In this document: piece by piece, positions 8,786 through 22,286 of the stretch | Layout of the letters: every line of letters starts with the position of its first letter | Numbering within the stretch: position 1 is the stretch's first letter | Origin: Beverwykella pulmonaria | Taxonomy: Eukaryota > Ascomycota > Dothideomycetes > Pleosporales > Melanommataceae | Assembly (NCBI GenBank): GCA_001599595.1 | Contig: BCHH01000001.1 | Location: forward strand, 4,965,818-5,029,817 | Direction of reading: 5' to 3' | DNA: 64,000 nucleotides | The notes under the pieces: generated by a model | Database searches by the model: none | What the model saw: the letters and a program-made list of their open reading frames with translations, nothing else | What the model was told of the DNA's origin: nothing | Translations under genes and position numbers: made by a program

Positions 8786-10290
8786 CTAGTGCGCGTACAT
8801 TCCCCCTGCCCGTTCTCCTAGCACTTCAAGCAATCTCTCCAAATCCCACTCCCCCTCCCACCCTTGCCCCAAGAACCCCATCCCCCCAAGCAATTCCAGG
8901 GCCTGATCCGCCCACTCCTCGGCCATCTCCTTATCCCTAGCCTGCAAATTCATCCGCGCCAGATTCGCATATTGATCTGTTAGCAACGAAGTCAGGTCCT
9001 CGTCTTTCATGTGCTGCGCAATTTGTTCGGCGTGCTTGATGGCGGCGTTCCATTTTCCGGCGCGCCAGAGCTCTTGGATGTGCTGTTCTGCGCCCGCGAT
9101 GGCCTCGCGGCGGGCATCAGATGCGGATTTTTCGGTCGGAGGGAGCGAGCATAAGGAGCAGGTACATGTGAAGCCCCAGCGCTTAAGGCCTTCGACGCGC
9201 TCGGCGGAGGGAAGACCGAGGAGGAGATCTGAGGTCGAGTTAGTGCTGCAGACGGGGAAGGCAAAAGAAGGAGACGTATATGGACTAGGGGAGGGGGGAA
9301 AGGAGAAACGCACAAGAAATGGTTATTTCCTCTCCGGGCTGAATGTCACGGAACGCTTTGATGGCTATGGAGATGCCGGCTTGGGAGAAGAGAACGAACG
9401 CGCTGGGTTTCTGTTAGCGGATACAACCTTTGAGGTTGGTCCGGAAGCTTCTTTAGCAGACTGACTTACTTAGGGTTACAGGCGTGGTTGATCCGCTACA
9501 CAGTCTTTCGTTAGCACACCCCTTCTCCCATCTCACCCCTTGCTCGCCCCAAACTTACAGAAACAAGCGGAAACAAACCCCTGAAACTCTCCCCCGCAAC
9601 AGTGGTCCCAAATGCATTCGTAACCATAACATCCTCTTCCGCTTTTCCCGTCCTATCTTCCGTCTCGCCCTCTTCATCTCGTCCACCACTGTGTTTCCCG
9701 CTCAACCCCATCACCGACTCCGGCCTCTTCAGTCTCTTCACCGCCTCCCTCAATACCTCCAGATTCTCGCTCTGACCCAACTTCTTCTCGATTGACAAGT
9801 CTGTGACTACACTCGCCTGGTCTACCATGAACGTCTCATATTGCTTTATCAGCCGCGTGGCGACAACACCCTTCCCCTTCCCAGGGATGTCATCGACAAT
9901 CTCGTATGGCGGCGCGTTGTAGTACAGATGCTCGGCCTGATCCTGTGTCAAGAAGTGACTGAGCGGATCTTCATCCAAATACTCCGCAGCTTTGGCAGCA
10001 ACTTTGGGTGTTGTGACGAGAGAGATTCCGTTTGCGCCCGTAGTGTTGGACGTGTACACGCAGTATTTCGGGGTTGAAATGGTGCAGTAGGGTTTGTGGC
10101 TCCATGGCGTGTGCGGGTTGTATTTGGGAGGAGAAGAAGCCGAGGCAAAGTGCTGGTGCTCTGGGGCGAGGAGCAGCTCGTCGATGGAGACGGAGCCGAT
10201 GGCTGCGATGGTGGGGCGGAGGGATGAAGTTATGATTAGGAAGGAGATGGGGAGGGAGAAATGGAGAGGAAGGGGGTTGGAGGAAGGCAT
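8786..10290 (-). CDS. SET-domain protein (SMYD-like layout)
   Basis: Predicted 436 residues from four exons: 10290-9559, 9495-9470, 9402-9310, 9245-8786. The second exon is only 26 bp and encodes RINHACNPN, the core SET motif. The third gives AFVLFSQAGISIAIKAFRDIQPGEEITIS, the fourth a post-SET-like WGFTCTCSLC with clustered cysteines. SET begins near residue 125 (YEIVDDIPGKGKGVVAT), and a helical repeat-like tail follows. The SET fold transfers methyl groups from S-adenosylmethionine to lysines. Unusually, the N-terminus is hydrophobic (SLPISFLIITSS) and looks like a signal peptide, as in a class of fungal SET proteins of unknown target. The third donor (GTTTCT at 9309) is weak and was chosen because it alone keeps frame. 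Confidence 0.78.
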
Positions 10291-10986
10291 GATGTAAATT
10301 GCATCCAGAGAGCTTCACCACGACGTGGAGTGGTGATGAGAAGACACTGATTTACTAACAACTGTGCGATGCAAGGTGTGGTGATGTTGTTTGTTCGTGG
10401 AGTGCATCGTGTCATCGTGCATGCACATTACCCGGAGATTAATAGCAATGCTTTAGACTAAATAAAAAAATGTTGCTGGAGATAATTTTGAAAAAGTCGT
10501 TTTCGCGAGGCCGACGAATAAGATGCGCAGGAGATCCGCCACGCTTAGAGACAACAGGTGTCGAAAGTGAGTGCCGAAAAACGGTATTTGATGCCATCTG
10601 GCCTTTGATACATGTGCAACCAAGGGTAGAAATATCCAGGAGGTCATCCTGTTAGACACCACAGGACGTAGTGAAACGTCCTGTACATTGACTGAGGACG
10701 CAAAACTGCTAACCAAGTGCTTGCTGAGTGGTAACATACCGCAGCAGTGGGAGTATATATCAGAAAGCTCGACCAAGCGAGCAGGACTTGGTGCGGAAAG
10801 TACTTTTGCATAGTATGCGTATCATTTTGCGTATGATTCTGGGAAATACCTTTGGCCTCGTTTTGGTCGCCTGGAACCCAATTCCGTCTCCTGAAGCCGA
10901 GGAACCCACGATGGGCAAGAATACCACGCACGACCCTCTCCCCTCGATACATCTAACCTGCACACGGTCAACCCCAGCCCCTTACC
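10291..10986. other. Intergenic
   Basis: About 700 bp upstream of the SET gene and downstream of the RidA-family gene. Contains only short unconvincing frames. Confidence 0.5.
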
Positions 10987-11700
10987 TCACAGCTTAGCCG
11001 TCTCACCGTTGAACGCAATGCACTCGATTTCCACGGGTACACCCTTGGGCAATTGCTTGACGGCGACACAGCTCCTTGCGGGCTTGTGGGCAAAGAACTG
11101 CTCGTACACGCCGTTCATCTCCGCAAAGTTGGCCATGTCGTCGAGGAAGACATTGACCTTGACCACGCGCGTGATGTCGGACCCGGCTTCCTTGAGGATG
11201 GCGATGATGTTGTTGCAGCACGAGGCGGTTTTGTCGGCGATGCTGCCCTCGATCAGGTTGCCGGCCTTGTCGGCGGGGATCTGGCCAGAGACGTAGATTT
11301 GGGCGCCTGCGATGATGGCTTGGGTCTGGCGCCATCCGCGTTAGTCCTTTCCCCCCGAACGTGCATAGCTCGGGTGGGCGACAGAGGGGGGAGAGTGTGC
11401 TCTGCTTCCAGAGCAGACCAGCCATGGTGCAAAGTGAGGACGTACGTAGGGTCCGGCAGCTACACGACAACTCAAATCAGCATTCCATCACTGCCCACAC
11501 GCCACCAACAGCGAGGCCTGCTTACGGGGACACGCATCAGCAGTGAAGACCTTCTTGATGTCAGACATGTTGCACGACTGCGAGAGCGGGGCGAACCGTA
11601 AGCGAGGTCGGAAATGGGGCCCGTGGTGAGGGAAGGTGAGGCGTGGGATCGGAGACGCGAGGTGTGAGAGAGGACGCAGCAATTGGGGTGTGCGGTGCAT
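10987..11700 (-). CDS. RidA/YER057c/UK114-family enamine deaminase
   Basis: Three exons: 11700-11526, 11459-11446 (14 bp) and 11325-10987. The RidA core starts at MSDIKKVF (ATG at 11568) and continues with PAGPYTQAIIAGAQIYVSGQIP, CCNNIIAILKEAGSD, VVKVNVFLDDMANFAEMNGVYEQFF, ARSCVAVKQLPKGVPVEIECIA, the full small-trimer fold, 131 residues. The family hydrolyses reactive enamine/imine intermediates made by PLP enzymes such as threonine dehydratase; yeast has mitochondrial Mmf1 and cytosolic Hmf1. The frame stays open upstream to an ATG at 11700, adding 44 residues rich in Arg, Pro, His and Ser with no acidic residue, which looks like a mitochondrial presequence. Initiation at 11700 would give a 175-residue mitochondrial form and at 11568 a cytosolic one. 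Dual use is inference. Confidence 0.85.
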
Positions 11701-12283
11701 GGACGGGCGGAGAGAGAGAGAAGGCAGTAGAGGAACGACAACGTGCCCGTGGTATGAGTATTCGCACAGCTAACGTAACGGCCGGCGTGCCGGGCTGCTT
11801 ACTGGCGAGCTCTCGCAAGGGCTGTGTGGCTGCGTCAGGGTCCTGGTGGTGTGGGTGTTAGGTCGAGAAGGGAAGGTGGGGGCGCCGACCGCGGAGCTGA
11901 GGGCTGGGGGCCCGGGGCGGCGCCTGATTGGCGCAAGGGTGGGCGGACGGCGGGGCAGCGACGAAAAAAGTTTGCGACCGTGTCAGAAAACAAAAAAGGT
12001 GACACTTTGATTCATTCAATCACAGCACGCCGCCGCCCGTAGTCTATAGTATATTCCGAATTTGCCACGTAGATTGCATGGGATGGAACAGAAAAGCCAG
12101 AACGCAGAGATGTGCCGTGATGAAAGCAAAACAGCGCTCGCGGATGTGGAGCATTATGCCGCGAGCGCGAGGGAACAACCAATGCGCCTTTTCCATGCAA
12201 ACGTGCGTCTATGGGGGGTGTGGGTATGGGATATGTTTTGTGGTATGTTTTGTGCAATGTTTTGTGGGGGTATAGCGAGCCGG
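11701..12283. other. Intergenic, GC-rich
   Basis: About 580 bp between the RidA-family gene's upstream start and the APRT stop; promoter region of the RidA-family gene. No gene seen. Confidence 0.5.
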
Positions 12284-13051
12284 CTATTTCTCCTGGCTCG
12301 AGAGGAGTGTGTAGACGGGCGCGTCGAGCTTGTCGCGCCCCTTGAGGAAGTCGAGCTCCAGCATGAAGACGTAGCCGACGAGCGTCGCGCCCAGCCCCTT
12401 GACGAGGGAGCCTGCGGCCGCTGCTGAACCGCCTGCGTGGTGTGGGTCAGTGACGCTGTCGACGGCCGTGGCCATGGTGGCCCGCGCGGACGTACCAGTA
12501 GCAATAATGTCGTCCACCACCAGCACCCGCTGTCCGCGCTTCACCGCATCGCTCTGCATCTGGAAGAAATCCGTGCCATACTCCTTCTCGTAGCCCGCCG
12601 TGCTGCAAGGCCCTGGGAGCTTTCCTTGCTTGCGGACGGGAACGAAGCCGGCGCCGAGCCGCAGTGCCAGACTGGGTCCAAAGAGGAACCCGCGCGCGTC
12701 GAGGCCGACCACGACGTCGGGCTTCTCGTCGAACTGCAGGACGTGCAGCTCCAGCGCCCGGATGAGGGCCGCGTGCAGCGCGGGGTCGGCGAAGATGGGC
12801 AGGATGTCTTCGAAGAGGATGCCTGGCGACGGGAAGTCGGGGAACTGGCGGAGAGCGCCCTTCAGCCTTATCTTAAGACGGGCGAGTTCGGCGGCGGAGG
12901 AGGCACCGGCGGCGGAGAGTCTTCCTTGGGAGGCATCGGACGTGAGCGTCGGGTCTGGATGGGAGTGGGGTGGGTGGCCAGCCGTGGCTGCAAGGTCGGC
13001 GTGTGGGGGGGAGGTCGGGAGCGAGGGCGTCGTGGTAGGGAAATGGGACAT
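12284..13051 (-). CDS. APT1: Adenine phosphoribosyltransferase
   Basis: Predicted 234 residues from exons 13051-12496 and 12432-12284. The 63-bp intron (12433-12495) is a multiple of three with no stop, so retained-intron reading would add 21 residues inside the PRPP loop; splicing restores VLVVDDIIATGGSAAAAGSL, the 13-residue PRPP-binding motif of type I phosphoribosyltransferases. Other landmarks are FPDFPSPGILFEDILPIF, VVGLDARGFLFG and VPVRKQGKLPG. The enzyme salvages adenine to AMP with PRPP in the cytosol. The first roughly 55 residues are a Pro/Ser/Thr/His-rich extension not found in yeast Apt1 (187 aa); no alternative in-frame ATG lies between it and the core. It sits 1.3 kb from the fused AIR synthase gene, on the same strand. 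Confidence 0.9.
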   Translation of the reverse strand: MSHFPTTTPSLPTSPPHADLAATAGHPPHSHPDPTLTSDASQGRLSAAGASSAAELARLKIRLKGALRQFPDFPSPGILFEDILPIFADPALHAALIRALELHVLQFDEKPDVVVGLDARGFLFGPSLALRLGAGFVPVRKQGKLPGPCSTAGYEKEYGTDFFQMQSDAVKRGQRVLVVDDIIATGTSARATMATAVDSVTDPHHAGGSAAAAGSLVKGLGATLVGYVFMLELDFLKGRDKLDAPVYTLLSSQEK

Positions 13052-13454
13052 GGTGGAGAAGAGAAGGGAGGGAGGAGGGCGGGCCTTTGAAGAAAACCGA
13101 CGCGCCTTGACCGCGACGCAAAACGCAGTCAGAGTGTGGAAGAAAACGGTCCGTCGTCCTGAACCGTGGGATGCAAATTATTACCATGGCGCGCCGCCGC
13201 ACCGCTGCTAGCCTCGAACAGCGACCGATCCATGCCCTCGATGCGAATTATCCAGCGACTTGCCCGCCCCCGACAGCACACATACTACTACCAGTGGTAC
13301 ACAGTAGCATACCTGCGGGCCTCAGCGCGCCCCCGATGCTAGACTTCCTAGTCCTGGCGACTCAGCCATCTCACCCCCTCGAGCGTGCTACTGCTGCCCT
13401 GTCCGTCCTGCCGAGCGATAAGCCCGTTCACTCGCCGTGGGCAGTCTTGCTCTG

Positions 13455-13488
<34 letters not shown>
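13455..13488. repeat. CTGC tetranucleotide microsatellite
   Basis: Roughly eight and a half uninterrupted copies of CTGC, followed by diverged units (CTGT, CTAC). Non-coding position upstream of APRT. Confidence 0.9.
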
Positions 13489-13491
<3 letters not shown>

Positions 13492-13813
13492 TACCTGTCA
13501 CAGCCAACCCACAACCGCTCCACTCCACCGCCAAACCAGATACTCTTCACATGTGGCTCCCAACAAAACGCCGCCAACGGCTGATATTGCGAGCAATCCA
13601 CCGCGCCTGGGAATGGTCTTTCGATTCGCCGTGACCCAATCTATTATTAATATCCTGCAACCTTGCCTGTTGCTTGCGGTGAGCGGATGAATCATGGCTC
13701 GCTCCCGCAGTCCATTGTTCCGCGCTCCAGAAACTCGAGCAGTTACAGTTGCGCTTGTTACATATGCTGATAATGATATGAGACCTCTCTTTCTCCACAA
13801 AAAGCACGCCACT

Positions 13814-13840
13814 CTGCAGCCGCCTGCAGCCGCCTGCAGC
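13814..13840. repeat. 10-bp tandem repeat
   Basis: Unit CTGCAGCCGC repeated nearly three times, in non-coding sequence. Confidence 0.85.
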
Positions 13841-14361
13841 CACACATGTCTTCCAGCCCACGCCATCCACTGGTCCTGTGGCCCAGAAGCCTTGGGCCTT
13901 TCTAGTCGCAGCCATAATCATAAGCATCTCACCACGCCATAGATCCATTGGGCAGTCCAAGGCAGCAGTTTGCGGACAAACACCGTAGCGTATTGCTCGA
14001 TAGGGCTTAGAAAGAGAGAGTCTATGAAGAGCTACAGCCCACCACGGCCTGATCGAAGCGAACCCCATGGAGTCTGAGCGCATTTGGGCATTGTACCTCT
14101 GTGTATAGATTGCCCATAGGAGCCGTCAACGGGACAGCCCTCTTTTTACTTTGGTCGACTTTTCCGCTCTCCGTTCACGGTCCGAGTCGACCCTAGGTAC
14201 CCACACACTCCGAGCATATCCACCAGGGCAGCTGCCAGCTGTCATGCATCGCGATATCTGCCCGATTCATCGTCATCGTCCGATGGCCCAATCGCGTGAA
14301 GCGAACCGTTACGCCTATACAGCTCGCCTTTTCCAAGCAACATAAGCCAAAGCAGCCGCCC

Positions 14362-16503
14362 TCACCTCCAGACCTCCATGTTTCGTATTGTGCAGTCGTC
14401 ACCCGTGTTCTTGACCAAAGATCCCACTGTGAACACCTTCTCTCCATATTCTTGGAGAATCTCCGTAGTACGCCTAACGTTGTTGGCATCGACCACTAGC
14501 ACCATGCCAAGCCCGGTGTTCCATGTTCGAGAAAACTCAATGTCATCGATGCGGCCCGCTTCCTTGAGCCATTTGAATACTTCTGGTACAGGCCACGAGT
14601 TCGCGTCGAGATTGGCTGCTAATGTTTTCGGCAACATGCGAGGTATGTTTTCGAGCAGGCCCCCACCAGTGATGTGGGACATGCCTTTGATGAGGCCTTT
14701 CCGGACGGTAGCTAGCAGCGGCTTCACGTATATCCTCGTTGGCACCAGAAGACTGGCACCCACTGTCTCGTCCGGGCTCCATGGAGCGGCGTCGTGGAAC
14801 GACAGTCCCTTTGTCTCGATGATTTTGCGGACGAGGGAGAAACCATTAGAGTGGACCCCACTTGATGCCAGGCCCAAGAGAACATCCCCCTCAACCATTC
14901 CCGCTTTATCAGGTAATATCGCTGCCCCTCTCTTTACCGCCCCGACTGCGCAACCTCCTGCGTCGTACTCGCCTGCCTTGTATAGGCCAGGCATTTCCGC
15001 TGTCTCTCCGCCCACGAGTGCCGTGTTGGCCAGTACGCAGCCTTCGGCAACACCTTGAACAAACGCCACCGTCTCCTCTACATTCAGGTTGCTGCAGGCG
15101 TAGTAATCGAGGAACATCAAAGGCTCGGCGCCTTGAACGACGAGATCGTTGACATTCATGGCAACAAGATCGATGCCGACGGTGTCGTGTTTCCCCATCT
15201 CAAATGCAATCTTGACCTTGGTCCCGATGCCGTCGATCGCGCCAACCAGGATCGGCGACTCTGTGTAGCCCGCGGCTTGCAAATCGAGAAGACCACCGAA
15301 TCCCCCAATCTCGGCATCCGCACCAGGCCGTTTTGTTCTGGCGACGATCTTCTTGATTCGCTGAACTAGTTCGTTCCCTGCGTCGATACTAACCCCGGCA
15401 GACGCGTATGTGAGGCCTTCTCCTTGGTGTGACGGTTGGGAGGGGGCCGCCGAGTGCCGAGTGACAGTCGTTCCCTCCTCAGCGGGTTGGAGCAACTTCC
15501 AATCACACGTGATGCCCTCCTTCTTGAACTCCTGCAGGAGATGTTCTGCTATCGAATCGAAGTTATCCGTTGCTAGCGCTAGAATGGTAGGACCGGCGCC
15601 CGACAGGCAAATGCCGAGCAGGCCAGGGTGTGACTGTGGGGTGACGGATTGTAGGATCTCCGTGAGACCAGGGATAAGCCCTCGTCGGTATGGCTGGTGA
15701 AGCTTGTCCTGCATCGCTGTGTATATGTTGTCTGGGTCCGGAGGAGATGCGCCAAGAGCGTGGGTTAACAGAGCCAGTCGTTGCATGTTGAAGATGGCGT
15801 CCTGCCTGGCGTAGGCTGCCGGCAGCACCTCGCGAGCTTTTGCAGTCGATACCTCGAATTGGGGTATGATGCACACACATTTGATTTCTGGCGCCCACTT
15901 GAATTTCAGGTAGTGGCCAATGTTGAGTGGTGGCTCCGGTGGTTGTAGACCAGTATCCACTCCTCCAGCAGGCTCTGGCAGGACTTCGCTGCGAGGAATT
16001 TCCAGTCGCCCTGCGTCTTCAGGTGACAGTTCGTTCAAATAGGTGCCAACGAAGCCGCCATACAGAGCCGCGGCGACATTGTCCGGATGGCGCTCTTCCA
16101 TGAGACAGTAATCGAGCATTCGTGCCTTGGAGAGATTCAGGTTGCCGACCTCATTCGCGAGGTTGACGCCAGCGACAATGGCGGCACCCGAAGACCCCAG
16201 TCCGCGCCCTAGGGGGATAGGGTTCTTGATGTGGACGTGCGTTTCGAGCGGGAAGGCGCGGACGCCGTGGCATCGGAGGACGTATACGGCGGTTCGGGTG
16301 ATGAGGTTGTCTTCGGCGACAAGGGGCACCGACTCTGAATTGACGCCCTCGTAGGTGATGCGGCAATTGAGCGAGTGTGTCGACGACTCCTGCTTGGTGA
16401 CGGTGACGGCGATCTCGAGATAGAGGTTGAGGGCGAGGCCAATGACATCAAAGCCGGGGCCGATATTGGCGGACGAGCAGGGGACCTTGATGAGGGTAGC
16501 CAT
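14362..16503 (-). CDS. Homoserine kinase fused to phosphoribosylformylglycinamidine cyclo-ligase (AIR synthase)
   Basis: A single intronless frame of 713 codons encodes two complete enzymes. Residues 1-341 are homoserine kinase (GHMP family, threonine pathway): KVPCSSANIGPGFDVIGLAL at the N-terminus, the ATP loop PLGRGLGSSGAA at 97-108, EERHPDNVAAALYGGF at 137-151 and the C-terminal LSGAGPTILAL at 300-310. A hydrophilic linker (342-363) leads into residues 364-713, a full-length PurM (about 350 residues, as in bacteria): YASAGVSIDAGN, GADAEIGGFGG, DGIGTK, NDLVVQGAEPLMFLDYYA, GGETAEMPG, LASSGVHSNGFSLVRKI, HITGGGLLENIPR. PurM closes FGAM to AIR in purine synthesis and in fungi is normally joined to GAR synthetase. 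The kinase start at 16503 fits the family; the frame stays open 78 codons further upstream. Confidence 0.93.
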   Translation of the reverse strand: MATLIKVPCSSANIGPGFDVIGLALNLYLEIAVTVTKQESSTHSLNCRITYEGVNSESVPLVAEDNLITRTAVYVLRCHGVRAFPLETHVHIKNPIPLGRGLGSSGAAIVAGVNLANEVGNLNLSKARMLDYCLMEERHPDNVAAALYGGFVGTYLNELSPEDAGRLEIPRSEVLPEPAGGVDTGLQPPEPPLNIGHYLKFKWAPEIKCVCIIPQFEVSTAKAREVLPAAYARQDAIFNMQRLALLTHALGASPPDPDNIYTAMQDKLHQPYRRGLIPGLTEILQSVTPQSHPGLLGICLSGAGPTILALATDNFDSIAEHLLQEFKKEGITCDWKLLQPAEEGTTVTRHSAAPSQPSHQGEGLTYASAGVSIDAGNELVQRIKKIVARTKRPGADAEIGGFGGLLDLQAAGYTESPILVGAIDGIGTKVKIAFEMGKHDTVGIDLVAMNVNDLVVQGAEPLMFLDYYACSNLNVEETVAFVQGVAEGCVLANTALVGGETAEMPGLYKAGEYDAGGCAVGAVKRGAAILPDKAGMVEGDVLLGLASSGVHSNGFSLVRKIIETKGLSFHDAAPWSPDETVGASLLVPTRIYVKPLLATVRKGLIKGMSHITGGGLLENIPRMLPKTLAANLDANSWPVPEVFKWLKEAGRIDDIEFSRTWNTGLGMVLVVDANNVRRTTEILQEYGEKVFTVGSLVKNTGDDCTIRNMEVWR

Positions 16504-17290
16504 GGCGGAGGGTGTGGTATGCGCCCTGAGACGTGCTGCGAACGGCAGAGGACGCTGATTTATGGTGTTGAGGCTGCGCGGAAAAAGTCTGGTGGGCGGG
16601 CAATGTGGATCAAAATTCATCCCACGTCGGTCCCAGCAAGCTCCGATAGCGGGGAAGAGGGGAGTGGTCTGAGCATCGCCGCGGTTGCACCTCCCTTCCC
16701 CGAGCTGTGGCTTTGTCAATGTGCAATTCACTTCCACTGCTCTTCATCTTCGCCTCCCATGGCTGGTGGTAAAAGATGGCGCATGTGCTATCTGGTACGC
16801 AATAGGCTATCATAGGTCAAGTCAGCGGGCACGTGGTGGGGTCAAGACGGTTGCCTCGGCCGTTGACTGCACCAGCACCGCCACGCCGCCACAACCAAAT
16901 CTGCGCTCTGCTTGACGTGGCAGACGCTGTGCAACTCGTCCCTCACGCAACAACCACTCAAGCGTGCAGCGGACAGCCTTGAACGGGCTTGAGAGAACAC
17001 GTGCCTAGGCATAAAAGGCAGAATCCGCCCCAGTTCCTGCACTGCTATCGGCTAGGCAGCCGGGCACTCAACACCCTTCGCCTTGACTCACGAATCGCCG
17101 TAGCGAACCAGGCAACGAGCTGTTTGCCTACATAAGTAGCTTCCGTCCAGGTAAGCAACTTCGGACGTCACCTCTCTTTGCCCTATTCTCTCTTTCGTCC
17201 ATTTGCGTCTGACCCAAGTCCGTCCACCTGTCTCACCTTGTCTGTTGCAGTCAACAATCCCCCGCCTCACAAATACTCACTCGTTTGCTC
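16504..17290. other. Divergent promoter region
   Basis: About 790 bp between the divergent kinase-cyclase fusion and the AAA ATPase gene. A possible 5'-UTR acceptor (TTGCAG) lies at about 17245-17250. No separate gene recognised. Confidence 0.5.
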
Positions 17291-19573
17291 ATGGATCACA
17301 TACAATTAAGGCCAAGAGGGGGACTCCACAGGTTCAACAACAGAAGAATGCCTCCCCCGATCGCCCCGGTCTCGTCTGGTTCTTCATCCGAAGACGAGCA
17401 GGTGCCCGTGACCAACGGCGTCAAGCGCGTCGTCACGAACGGCGTGGCCAAGAAAGACGATGAGCCTGTAGAGCGCTGCGACCCCGGAATGAAGAGCGGG
17501 CTGAAAAACCTTTACTCGGGCAAAGAAGATAGAAAGGGGAGGTATCAATGGCAGGACACCATTCCCGAGGACATCGGCGACCCGGCGGAGAATGATGAAA
17601 CCGCAAAGTGGGCTCTGGTCGTGAGGAACGTCAAGGTCTACAACGATCCCCGGAGAGTGCTTGCCATACATTCCATCGTCATCCAAAGCCCCCTTCTTAA
17701 GAAGCTATTGAAGAATGTCGTGAAAAACTATCCGGGGGTTGCAGTTGGCCTCAATCACTTGGAATTCTCCGGCAAATTTGAGCCTCTCATTCATCGATGG
17801 ACGGAACTACAGGAAGCCATCAAGGCGCTTGGTGACGAAACTGAGGATGACCGCACGACAAAGGCCCACGCCGATTTGCTGCAGGACATTCTTATCAAGG
17901 AATTCAAGACCCTAATCGACACATCCCAGGACATGAAGTCCAAGCGGGTCATGACCTACGAGCATCTGTGGACCCTGTTCCAACCCGGTACTATCGTCTT
18001 CGCTCGGCAGGACGGACAGGAGACAGCCTTGACCCTCACAGAAACAAAGTATGGCGTAGACGTCAACGGAAACCCATGCTTTTGGCTCATGTGCAAATTT
18101 GTGGACTGGGATGGTGCAAAGTTTGGCACCAGCAAGCTGAATCTCTCCATCCCCTTGTACACCGGTACACGGCACATCACTCAACTCCGGGTGTTCCCGC
18201 TCGAGTATCACAGCGACGCACAGGCACTACGAGCCCGATTGATTGAGCGGGGTGCCAAGACAGAGTCGCTCGCTGGGCCCAACTACAAAGCCTATCACGG
18301 TATCGGATGGCGGTTGAACTCCTATGGGACAAAAGATAAACACAACGTCAAGGGAAGAGTAAGTACTCCCATCAAAGCGCTCTTGCCAAGCGTTTCAATA
18401 CAAGTATCGGTGTAGCTAATGTTTTCTAGATCGTCATCGACACGTATGGATGGAACCGTTTCAACCCAACCTTTGCCGTATATACCGCCCCACTGGCCCA
18501 AAAGGACCCCGTGCAGAATACAGGGGAGGGTAGCGGTGACGAGGGTGGCGAAGAAGACGCATACGACGAGGGTGGCGACGATAGCGGAATGCCTCTTGAC
18601 GGCCACTTTGCGTACGAAGAAGATGCCGCCAAGCATGCTCCACTCACCACTGAACAAAAGCTCACGTGCTCTCCACTTCTTCGTGGATACAGCCTGAAGA
18701 ACAAGATATGGTTGAACTTTTTTGTCAACTGTGTCACGGAGATTGAGTGGCAAAAAGATGCCTTTGATCGACTGGTCCTTCCCAAAAACCAGAAAGAGCT
18801 CATCCTTGGGTTCACAGAATCTCAAAGAAAATATCGAGAGGCATTCGACGATGTGATTGAGGGCAAAGGCCGAGGCATGATCATTTTGCTGTGTGGTCCG
18901 CCTGGTGTCGGGAAAACGCTCACTGCCGAATCAGTAGCAGAGGAAATGAAAGTTCCGCTGTACATGATGAGTGCTGGCGATCTGGGCCTTGATCCGCGTC
19001 GTGTAGAGGCCAAGCTACAAGACATTCTTGAAATGTGCACACGCTGGAATGCGGTCCTTCTTTTAGATGAGGCCGACGTTTTCTTGGAGCAACGTTCATT
19101 GCACGAGCTTGAGCGAAACAAGCTGGTCAGTATATTCTTGAGAGTCCTGGAATATTACGAAGGTAAGGAAACCCAACCCCTGAACTCAGTTCGATCTTTG
19201 TGCTCACCTCATAGGTACTATGTTCCTCACCACCAACCGCGTGCAAACATTCGATCCAGCGTTTCAATCGCGCATACACATTTCGCTCGACTACCAAGAG
19301 CTGTCAATCAAGTCACGGAAGACGGTGTGGACAAATTTCCTCAACTCTTCAGCACAAGAGCACACGATTACCGAGGGTGAGCTGAATGATCTCGCACGGA
19401 TGAACATGAATGGTCGCCAGATCAAGAATATCTTGAAGATTGCGAGACTGCTTGCGTCGCGCAAGGAGGAGAAGTTGAGCTATGAATCCATCATCACGAC
19501 CTTGGAGATTACGCAACATCTCCACAACGAGACGCAGTTCTCGGAGAGAACAAGGGGAACCATCTACCAATAG
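17291..19573 (+). CDS. AAA+ ATPase of the fungal DUF7025-type family
   Basis: Predicted 719 residues from exons 17291-18358, 18430-19162 and 19215-19573. The N-terminal half is the conserved but uncharacterised part found in front of many fungal AAA ATPases (VVRNVKVYNDPRRVLAIHSIVIQSP; LWTLFQPGTIVFARQDG; CKFVDWDGAKFG). After an acidic Gly/Asp/Glu stretch comes one AAA module: Walker A GPPGVGKT at about 512-519, Walker B LLLDEADVF at about 566-574, then TMFLTTNRVQTFDPAFQSRIH with the sensor-1 Asn and arginine finger formed across the last intron. The lid continues with RMNMNGRQIKNILKIARLLA. Related to Bcs1/CDC48-type folds; function unknown. An alternative start at 17348 (MPPPIAP) would trim 19 residues. 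Confidence 0.88.
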
Positions 19574-20346
19574 ACGGTTTTCACTTTCGGGGTCACTACA
19601 AGGAGTCTGGGTGCGCATAGTATATTGTATGGAACCTTGTTGCTGCCTGGGCATGGGCTTTCTATCGAGCACAGCGAGGGAGACAGGGGCTCCTTTTGCT
19701 TCTTGCTGCATGCGTCGAAAGGCCTCAGGTTGGGAGATGGGGGTGGGAAGCGGTGTGCGTTTGTGCTGTGCGTTTTCTTCACCAACTAATGGGGTTGTCT
19801 CTGTCTCTTCTTTGTCATATAAGTTCCCTTGGTGCCGGTGCTTCTTGCATTAGACTTTACGAATTGAAACCACAATTGATAATCGAGCTCTGGTGCGTAA
19901 CACCAGATGCAAAGGTCTATTAGACCTCTTTGCGGTAAGTGCTGTCCTATTTAAAGGCCTTGCACACTTATCTCACCTGGCAGCTTGATCCAGGGGCGCC
20001 TCTGCACACAGTAATCAGATATAATATCACGTGATTTTCACGTGAAGACATCCGCTGTTACATTGTCCAAAAATTGAGCGTGCCCGCAATTTCGGAATAT
20101 TCCGTTGCACGACGATCAATAATTCTCACACCATGGCAAGTGAAATCCTGGCTGCGATCACCGTTAGCAATGGTGCCGGTGCCGGTGCCGGGCGATCTAG
20201 TTTGCTGCCCCGCTTGAAAGGTCGCAATTAACTTCCAGCCCTTGCATCTTGGTACGTCCATCCTTCGTCATATCGTGTCTAATCTATTGAGCACAGTCCT
20301 TAGAGAACTCGAGCGGATAAATAGGTTGTGCCTAGCCGCCGAAAGT
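19574..20346. other. Intergenic
   Basis: About 770 bp. Contains close CACGTG sites (ATCACGTGATTTTCACGTGAAG near 20027-20046) and a short triplicated GGTGCC at about 20173-20190. Promoter of the glycosidase-like gene. Confidence 0.5.
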
Positions 20347-22286
20347 ATGCATTGGTCTCTCTTCTATCTCGTCCCTGGATCGACGGTCGTCATGATTGCT
20401 GCTGTGCTGCTTCAACTGCTTTGGGGGCTGGGTGTGAGAAGTGAGCCGCCGTTTAATAATCCTCCTGGTGTCCAGATATGGTGTGGGAAGGCCTATCGTG
20501 CAACTGTATGTCTATTTCTCTCCCATAATAACCAAATAGTCAATTGATGCACGCGCTTCAAGAAGCAGGAGACATTGCTGATTTCGACATGCAGGATCCG
20601 TCTTTCGATCCTGGAGGCCAAATCTCACCGCCAGAAGAAATTGACAAAATACAAAAGCTCGACTTACGCATGCACCCACGATACAATTTCTTTCTCAGCT
20701 CCGAAACCACAGGGTCATTCATCTTCTCCACCCTCGTGTCTACTGCTACGCACGGTCTACCTTTCAGGAACCAGACCTACTATAGCAATGATCCTAAAAC
20801 AGCAAAACCACTCACAGAATTATCGGTGGAAATCAGGAATAGCGGCACCAATATCGTTATCGTGAAAGAGGTGTGGATACCGGTCAATGCGACAGAGTTC
20901 GAAGTGCCATTCGATTTGAGTTTGCTAGAAGTGAAGACGGGCTTTCTATCAAGTGTGTCGGTAATTGCGAATTCTCCTGATGCAGTTCAAACGTTCTACT
21001 CGGATACTTTCGTCACTGTTCTCCCGGATCGCAACGATACAGGCAGTGTGGCACGCATTGATGCACTCTACGGTGGGATTGAAGTAAAATCTTCGTTGTT
21101 GACGAACAATGCTTGGAAACCCGTCTTCCCGTATTCCTTCTATACGTCATGGGACTGGATAGCTAGCACCATTAACAACGCTTCCGCACCCAAGAACCTC
21201 TCCACATTTCGAGACCTCGGATACAATCTCATCCACCCCGTTCCGCCTGGTGGTGACGATCCGTTCAACCACACCGTGTTTGAACAGTTCCTTAGGATCT
21301 GCGATGATCTGGAATTATACGTCATGTATGATATGCGACACACTTACCAAAACGCTTCCAGCATCACGGACCAACTCTCTCATCTGCAAAATCACCCATC
21401 CCTACTACTTTACTACACAGCTGACGAGCCAGACGGGTGGTGCGACCCGCTCAATGCGACTCTCACTTCCTACAAGCACATCAAGAGTATTGACCCATAT
21501 CACCCTGTTAGCCTAGTACTCAACTGCGCAAACTTCTACTTCGAATCTTATACATCCGGCGCAGACATCATCCTCGAAGATACGTACCCTATCGCAGTCA
21601 ACACATCTTTCAGCACCGTATATCACACTCCATGCAACGCTACATACGGCGACTGTGGCTGCGACAACTGCCATTTCAATGATGCTGCGTTCCCGCCAGA
21701 ATATACACACAATGCGTTTTTAGACATCATTGATCGCACGGAGAATATGTATTTGTATCAAGAGTGGGTGGCGAGCCGGCCAGCGAAGAAACCTATTTGG
21801 GGCGTCCCGCAGGCTTTTTGGGATAATGGGAGTTTCTGGGATAGATGGCCGAGCGCGAAGGAGGAGGCGGTTATGGGAGTGTTGAGGATTAATCATGGGG
21901 CGAAGGGAGTAGTGGCGTGGATTTATCCGACGAGCGTAGAGGTTGAGGAGGTGACTTCTTCCCTTGCGAAAATTTTGGGGAGCGAGCAAGTCGTGAGGTT
22001 TACACTGGGTAGCAAGCGGATTGCCGGGCTGGCGGTTAGTGGCGGGGATGGGTTGATAGATGTTGCGGCTTGGGTGAGGGATAGAGAACTGCTGGTCAGT
22101 GTGGTTTATCAGGGGTATGCGGGTGTGAGTGGAATAACAGAGATCGCACTTCCGAAGGAGGTAGAAGTTGAAGTTGAGACGTTGTGGGGGAGTGGAGGCT
22201 GGGAAGTTCGTGACCGAAAAATATTAGTAAAGCAAGGGCTAGAGGCGTTGGAGATTGGGATTTTGAAGTTGAAGATTGTAATGTAA
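20347..22286 (+). CDS. Membrane-anchored glycoside-hydrolase-like protein (TIM-barrel type)
   Basis: Predicted 616 residues from exons 20347-20505 and 20595-22286; the 89-bp intron joins WCGKAYRAT to DPSFDPGGQI, as expected for this family. Residues about 10-28 are a hydrophobic signal anchor (STVVMIAAVLLQLLWGL), so the bulk is probably extracytoplasmic, in keeping with many Asn-X-Ser/Thr sites. The central part reads as a barrel: FYTSWDWIAST, DLGYNLIHPVPPGG, LELYVMYDMRH, LLLYYTADEPDGW (a plausible catalytic acid in ADEPD), DIILEDTYPI, KPIWGVPQAFWDNGSFWDRWPS and GAKGVVAWIYPT; a beta-rich C-terminal domain follows. The family occurs widely in ascomycetes without an assigned substrate. The in-frame ATG at 20242 would add 35 residues ahead of the anchor. 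Confidence 0.75.

What the first reader, a model, noticed from the sequence alone, without database searches (positions are those of the whole stretch)
14362..16503. Homoserine kinase and AIR synthase (PurM) fused in one intronless protein
Two complete enzymes from different pathways share one frame: homoserine kinase (threonine, residues 1-341) and PurM (purines, 364-713), joined by a 22-residue hydrophilic linker encoded at about 15414-15480. Both keep their catalytic motifs and there is no stop, start or splice signal at the junction. In fungi PurM is normally fused to GAR synthetase (Ade5,7), and homoserine kinase stands alone. I know of no described Thr1-PurM enzyme. The fusion could co-regulate purine and threonine synthesis or mark a PurM split from Ade5,7. 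Adenine salvage (APRT) lies 1.3 kb away on the same strand.
Basis: partly seen in the sequence, partly recalled or inferred. Interest (0 to 1): 0.88.

Follow-up and report, generated by a model that had tools for sequence, protein, structure and literature searches.

The report
AIR synthase moved onto homoserine kinase
In this fungus, and apparently in much of its large class (Dothideomycetes), a purine-making enzyme has left its usual partner protein and become the tail of a threonine-making enzyme, a natural two-in-one protein for which no description was found.

Summary
One open frame on the minus strand (14362-16503) encodes homoserine kinase (residues 1-349) joined to AIR synthase/PurM (364-713). 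It is not an assembly error: 224 of the 225 distinct relatives listed carry both enzymes in one chain; the exception is a 336-residue fragment on a 1.7-kb contig. All 19 named holders looked up are Dothideomycetes, in eight orders. Searches of this genome found no second PurM and no second homoserine kinase. Its only GAR synthetase found is a separate 429-residue protein on another contig, ending where the PurM half of fungal Ade5,7 would begin. The closest 120 bifunctional GAR synthetase-PurM proteins are at most 68% identical, and all 33 genera named among them lie outside Dothideomycetes. In a tree the fused PurM forms one clade beside fungal Ade5,7 PurM, far from bacteria. Best reading: in an ancestor of these Dothideomycetes the PurM half of Ade5,7 was relocated to the 3' end of THR1, leaving GAR synthetase alone. 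Both halves keep their motifs and are probably active. Whether the link couples the two pathways is untested.

The parts
14362..16503 (-). THR1-PurM fusion gene: one intronless open frame of 713 codons plus stop
   Evidence: same length and both domains in relatives; ATG at 16503 chosen because relatives in alignment A1 begin there, although the frame stays open to 16737
15457..16503 (-). homoserine kinase (ThrB/Thr1) part, residues 1-349
   Evidence: TIGR00191 348.5 bits; GHMP kinase Pfam domains; alignment to solved homoserine kinases
   Evidence: lies between the two model matches; 12-25 residues between flanking motifs in the 191 of 226 fusions where both motifs were found
14365..15414 (-). 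AIR synthase (PurM) part, residues 364-713
   Evidence: TIGR00878 412.3 bits; AIRS and AIRS_C; solved AIR synthases; tree with Ade5,7 PurM
12284..13051 (-). neighbour, not part of the fusion: adenine phosphoribosyltransferase (salvage)
   Evidence: PF00156; NF002636 183.9 bits over its cut-off 125, TIGR01090 185.6 bits just under its cut-off 185.85

Best explanation
A bifunctional enzyme. Its N-terminal half phosphorylates homoserine (threonine pathway) and its C-terminal half closes FGAM to AIR (fifth step of purine synthesis). It arose once, in an ancestor of the sampled Dothideomycetes: the PurM half of the bifunctional Ade5,7 (GAR synthetase-AIR synthase) was copied or moved to the 3' end of the homoserine kinase gene, the break falling in the short Ade5,7 linker, and GAR synthetase remained as a separate protein. 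Shown here: the single frame, the two families, the spread, the lack of a second copy found in this genome, the stand-alone GAR synthetase, the tree. Inferred: that both halves are active, that the path was relocation from Ade5,7 rather than independent loss and gain, and that the immediate effect is equal co-production of one threonine and one purine enzyme from the THR1 promoter. I think it more likely that the fusion was kept because PurM gained a working promoter and neither half was harmed (a nearly neutral capture) than because the reactions are metabolically coupled.
For: Frame and domains. Only one PurM and one homoserine kinase found: one match; the fusion plus two AIRS_C matches in one 1372-residue frame, which I take from family knowledge to be FGAM synthase. 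Only one GAR synthetase found, on C14, 429 aa with an inferred 82-bp intron, ending RKDIAGRALKR-stop (TIGR00877 533 bits); no PurM or HSK remnant beside it (best E 2.8 in 8 kb) and no GAR synthetase remnant near the fusion (best E 0.97). Bifunctional proteins have RKDIAHRAFK...EALTYASAGV in one chain, so the gap between the two separate proteins falls in that linker and the fusion keeps the E-[AG]-L-T-Y-A start. Fused PurM is 60-67% identical to 120 Ade5,7 PurMs and 45.5-51.0% to the 10 bacterial ones fetched. One fusion clade, 99/93 and 100/98 support, in a fungal group apart from bacteria with 100/100 and 100/99. Motifs kept in 221-226 of 226 proteins. Rest of both pathways present: PurK homologue over cut-off, PurF, PurN and threonine synthase homologues as exon pieces under cut-off.
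Against: No enzyme, transcript or protein data. The branching of the fusion clade inside Ade5,7 is weak (85/72, unresolved), so the tree alone does not prove descent from a bifunctional ancestor; that step rests on outgroups being bifunctional. Eurotiomycetes, Lecanoromycetes and Arthoniomycetes were not sampled by any listed hit, so the boundary is open. No stand-alone fungal homoserine kinase was retrieved, so the ancestry of that half was not tested.
Confidence: 0.85

Rival explanations
1. Metabolic coupling: the fusion is kept because threonine and purine synthesis gain from being tied, for instance because threonine is a source of glycine (used by GAR synthetase) and of one-carbon units, or because both enzymes join one assembly in starved cells.
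For: The fusion persists over eight orders without a listed intact protein in which the two are apart. A review lists yeast Thr1 and Ade5,7 each among proteins that form foci in stationary phase (passages of PMC6874960). APRT is adjacent here and, by a run-on gene model, in Bipolaris maydis (P0100).
Against: Another review says the yeast PurDM protein did not form clusters in a systematic screen (passage of PMC10912719). The two reactions share no metabolite. The linker is the least conserved stretch in length and sequence. The one Gcn4-like TGACTCA site near the gene (17084, 581 bp upstream) is not enriched: 4 in the window against 9.3 expected.
Confidence: 0.2
2. PurM was lost from Ade5,7 and replaced by a PurM from a bacterium, which then joined homoserine kinase.
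For: Bacterial PurM is a single-domain protein, so a transfer would need no fission.
Against: Identity is 60-67% to fungal Ade5,7 PurM and at most 51% to the nearest bacterial ones found by one scan of bacterial and archaeal genomes; the tree groups the fusion with fungi at full support.
Confidence: 0.02
3. The fusion is a mis-assembly or a wrongly joined gene model of two neighbouring genes.
For: Run-on gene models do occur here: P0100 joins the fusion to APRT.
Against: In this window it is raw DNA, one frame without intron, stop or donor-like site at the junction, and 224 of 225 listed relatives from many sources have the same join.
Confidence: 0.01
4. One half is a non-catalytic passenger, with the fusion acting as a single enzyme.
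For: No activity has been measured.
Against: No other homoserine kinase or PurM was found in the genome; family motifs are kept in 221-226 of 226 fusions, the misses including truncated sequences; residues aligned to those I recall as homoserine-site residues in the M. jannaschii enzyme (N13, D19, E137, H139, R224, R273) are invariant in 31 fusions.
Confidence: 0.03

Closest known systems
Ade5,7 (fungal bifunctional GAR synthetase-AIR synthase) and animal trifunctional GART
   Same: Carries an AIR synthase half of the same lineage, at the C-terminal side of another enzyme, joined by a short linker; the E-[AG]-L-T-Y-A segment at the start of PurM is kept.
   Different: The N-terminal partner is homoserine kinase, not GAR synthetase; GAR synthetase is a separate protein on another contig.
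Stand-alone homoserine kinase (ThrB/Thr1, GHMP kinase family)
   Same: TIGR00191 equivalog over cut-off, kinase motif and aligned substrate-site residues.
   Different: Carries a complete 350-residue AIR synthase at its C-terminus.
Stand-alone bacterial PurM
   Same: TIGR00878 equivalog; 45.5-51.0% identical to the 10 bacterial proteins fetched.
   Different: Not free-standing, and of fungal Ade5,7 lineage.
Other reported fungal metabolic fusions, e.g. spermidine synthase-saccharopine reductase of Basidiomycetes (PMC10051792, seen only in the listing)
   Same: Two enzymes of different pathways joined in one clade of fungi and separate in another.
   Different: Different enzymes; here one half was also taken out of an older fusion.

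Membership tests
Homoserine kinase (ThrB) | Match to the equivalog model over cut-off | tested here: met
   TIGR00191 348.5 bits, cut-off 168.25
Homoserine kinase (ThrB) | GHMP ATP-binding motif and conserved substrate-site residues | tested here: met
   GRGLGSS and HPDN in 226 of 226, QD.xHQPYR in 222 of 226; N13, D19, E137, H139, R224, R273 invariant in 31 fusions; residue roles recalled
Homoserine kinase (ThrB) | ATP-dependent phosphorylation of homoserine | not testable with these tools
   needs an assay or complementation of a yeast thr1 mutant
AIR synthase (PurM) | Match to the equivalog-domain model over cut-off and PurM motifs | tested here: met
   TIGR00878 412.3 bits, cut-off 236.35; five motifs each in 221-225 of 226 fusions
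AIR synthase (PurM) | FGAM to AIR cyclisation | not testable with these tools
   needs an assay or complementation
Ade5,7 (GAR synthetase-AIR synthase) | GAR synthetase and AIR synthase in one chain | tested here: not met
   the only GAR synthetase found is on C14 and the only PurM found is on C1 in the window; so not a member, although its PurM half is of that lineage
Ade5,7 (GAR synthetase-AIR synthase) | PurM half of fungal Ade5,7 lineage | tested here: met
   60.1-67.3% identity to 120 Ade5,7; groups with them apart from bacteria; nested versus sister position not resolved

The most novel reading that the evidence does not exclude
The fusion is a selected metabolic coupler, kept since an early Dothideomycete ancestor: tying AIR synthase to homoserine kinase sets purine output by threonine and glycine supply, through shared expression and perhaps a joint assembly of two enzyme families whose solved relatives I recall as homodimers, and it replaced the older GAR synthetase-AIR synthase coupling found in animals and most fungi.
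Probability: 0.2. Interest if true: 0.82.

Novelty: new variant of a known kind. Interest (0 to 1): 0.62.

Why it matters
The joining of GAR synthetase to AIR synthase is old (yeast, animals) and is often read as favouring purine flux. Here a class of fungi seems to have undone it and given AIR synthase to an enzyme of another pathway, so the value of the old fusion, and of fusing unrelated enzymes, can be tested directly by swapping architectures in yeast. The join is a clean, rare genomic mark that may define Dothideomycetes. Databases name these proteins for one half only ('homoserine kinase' or 'PurM-like'), which can hide an essential step in pathway models.

Tried and rejected
Bacterial origin of the fused PurM was tested with one scan of bacterial and archaeal genomes and two trees, and set aside. 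Remnants of PurM or HSK beside the GAR synthetase, and of GAR synthetase beside the fusion, were sought and not found. A regulatory link by Gcn4/CPC1-like sites was checked and is unremarkable. An AlphaFold model from 31 fusions was poor (mean pLDDT 67.0, pTM 0.48), so nothing is concluded about the linker or domain packing and no fold search was run; the second structure job was not used. One search, made with the first 404 residues of a Delphinella fusion so that lengths of about 222-707 aa were admitted, was meant to bring up stand-alone homoserine kinases; its 120 listed rows show fusions and one contig-end fragment, so the ancestry of that half stays untested. Leonard and Richards 2012 on fungal gene fusions (recalled) is not held, so I cannot say whether its lists contain this fusion. 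Nothing was found in ten answered paper searches; the single paper is about maize downy mildew and was seen in the listing only.

Full report
WHAT IS THERE. The window's 14362-16503, on the minus strand, is one open frame of 713 codons from ATG to stop. The first 349 residues match the homoserine kinase equivalog model TIGR00191 (residues 5-349, 348.5 bits against a cut-off of 168.25) and residues 364-698 match the AIR synthase model TIGR00878 (412.3 bits against 236.35); Pfam agrees. By sequence the closest solved chains are bacterial homoserine kinases for the first half and AIR synthases, including a chain named AIR synthase (7lvp) and the human one (2v9y), for the second. The junction holds no stop, no Met in residues 330-435 and no donor-like word.

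NOT AN ARTEFACT. A search of about 5.8 billion proteins found 5242 relatives; the 120 listed run from 90% to 69% identity and all 120 carry both domain families. A second search, with the first 404 residues of the Delphinella fusion, listed 105 further distinct proteins; together 224 of 225 hold both halves by the PurM motif check, the exception being P0322, 336 residues on a 1706-base contig. Sixteen of these 225 are shorter than 680 residues. Family motifs are kept in 221 to 226 of 226 proteins, the window's own included; the misses include truncated sequences such as P0254, P0307 and P0322, and also some long ones (for instance P0096 and P0314) in which a motif is altered or absent.

WHO HAS IT. 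I looked up 19 of the organisms named. All 19 are Dothideomycetes: Aulographales, Mycosphaerellales, Myriangiales, Dothideales, Botryosphaeriales, Mytilinidiales, Pleosporales, Gloniales, and Peltaster, unplaced. The other names in those lists were not looked up. One row, P0321, is labelled Quercus suber, a plant; I take it for fungal contamination but did not test that. The nearest named relative of the window's protein is that of Pleomassaria siparia (88%), so the window is probably from Pleosporales.

WHERE IS ADE5,7? In this 45.6-Mb genome the fusion protein finds one match only. The AIRS_C family finds the fusion and two places in one 1372-residue frame on C12, which I take to be FGAM synthase. 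The homoserine kinase model finds the fusion alone. GAR synthetase models find one place, on C14. I read that gene as two exons with an 82-base intron, 429 residues, ending RKDIAGRALKR-stop; it matches TIGR00877 over residues 6-427 at 533 bits. Eight kilobases around it hold no PurM or homoserine kinase remnant (best E 2.8), and window 10001-22000 holds no GAR synthetase remnant (best E 0.97). These searches read six frames without introns, so they could miss a gene cut into very short exons.

WHAT OTHERS HAVE. A query made by joining that GAR synthetase to the window's PurM half, the order used by yeast Ade5,7, listed 120 of 7992 scored proteins, all bifunctional, at 63-68% identity. I looked up all 33 genera named there: none is in Dothideomycetes. 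They fall in Leotiomycetes, Sordariomycetes, Lichinomycetes, Coniocybomycetes, Sareomycetes, Candelariomycetes, Xylonomycetes, Geoglossomycetes and Pezizomycetes, with two unplaced. Yeast and the rice blast fungus have Ade5,7 (passages of PMC9502316). Eurotiomycetes, Lecanoromycetes and Arthoniomycetes are named in none of the three lists, which is no evidence either way.

ORIGIN OF THE PURM HALF. It is 60.1-67.3% identical to the PurM of the 120 bifunctional proteins and 45.5-51.0% to the ten bacterial PurMs that one scan returned. In a tree of 18 of 121 fusions, 26 of 120 Ade5,7 and 9 of 10 bacteria, the fusions form one clade (99/93) in a fungal group separated from bacteria at 100/100, with the Pezizomycetes Ade5,7 outside (85/72). 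With human, 7lvp and a further bacterial PurM chain (9jzw) added, and L011 left out, the fusions are again one clade (100/98) in a Pezizomycotina group (100/99), but the order of branches inside that group is not resolved. So common descent with fungal Ade5,7 is firm; nesting inside it is not. The junctions fit relocation: Ade5,7 reads RKDIAHRAFK-(short linker)-EALTYASAGV, with 9-13 residues between motifs in 101 of the 102 of 120 proteins where both motifs were found (20 in one); our GAR synthetase stops at RKDIAGRALKR, and the fusion resumes at E-[AG]-L-T-Y-A after a linker of 12-25 residues between motifs (191 of 226 scored).

HOW IT WORKS. Shown: both families, one chain, and no second copy found. 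Inferred: both halves are active, because each pathway has homologues of its other steps here (PurK over cut-off; PurF, PurN and threonine synthase as exon pieces below the bacterial cut-offs) and no other enzyme for these two steps was found. The certain consequence of one frame is equal synthesis of the two enzymes. My first choice for why it persists is promoter capture with little cost; coupling of threonine, glycine and purine supply is the bolder reading. Literature on assemblies is mixed: one review lists yeast Thr1 and Ade5,7 among proteins that form stationary-phase foci (passages of PMC6874960), another says the yeast PurDM protein did not cluster in a screen (passage of PMC10912719). 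A Gcn4-like site 581 bases upstream is not notable (4 in the window, 9.3 expected).

NOVELTY. Ten answered full-text searches of open-licence papers listed no paper whose title or abstract describes a homoserine kinase-AIR synthase fusion; I did not read the listed papers in full, and subscription papers, including the 2012 survey of fungal gene fusions that I recall, could not be seen. Public records show the joined domains but name one half. I file it as a new variant of a known kind, the multifunctional biosynthetic enzyme, made unusual by taking one half out of an older, conserved fusion.

Noticed in passing
12284-13051 and P0100 (Bipolaris maydis): APRT sits 3' of the fusion on the same strand here; a Bipolaris maydis gene model runs from the fusion into an APRT with loss of the PurM end, which suggests the same neighbourhood in another Pleosporales family.
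   Followed up: partly
P0321: A fusion protein is labelled Quercus suber (cork oak), probably fungal contamination of a plant record.
   Followed up: no
17285-19573: Upstream and divergent from the fusion lies a plus-strand gene with a DUF7025 domain and an AAA ATPase domain in consecutive open frames, probably one gene with introns.
   Followed up: no
20544-22286: A 580-residue plus-strand open frame with no Pfam match at E 0.001.
   Followed up: no
P0002-P0121: Where sources name the fusion they use one half only: 'homoserine kinase', 'PurM-like', 'AIR synthase', or, for P0105, 'Bifunctional purine biosynthetic protein ADE1'.
   Followed up: no
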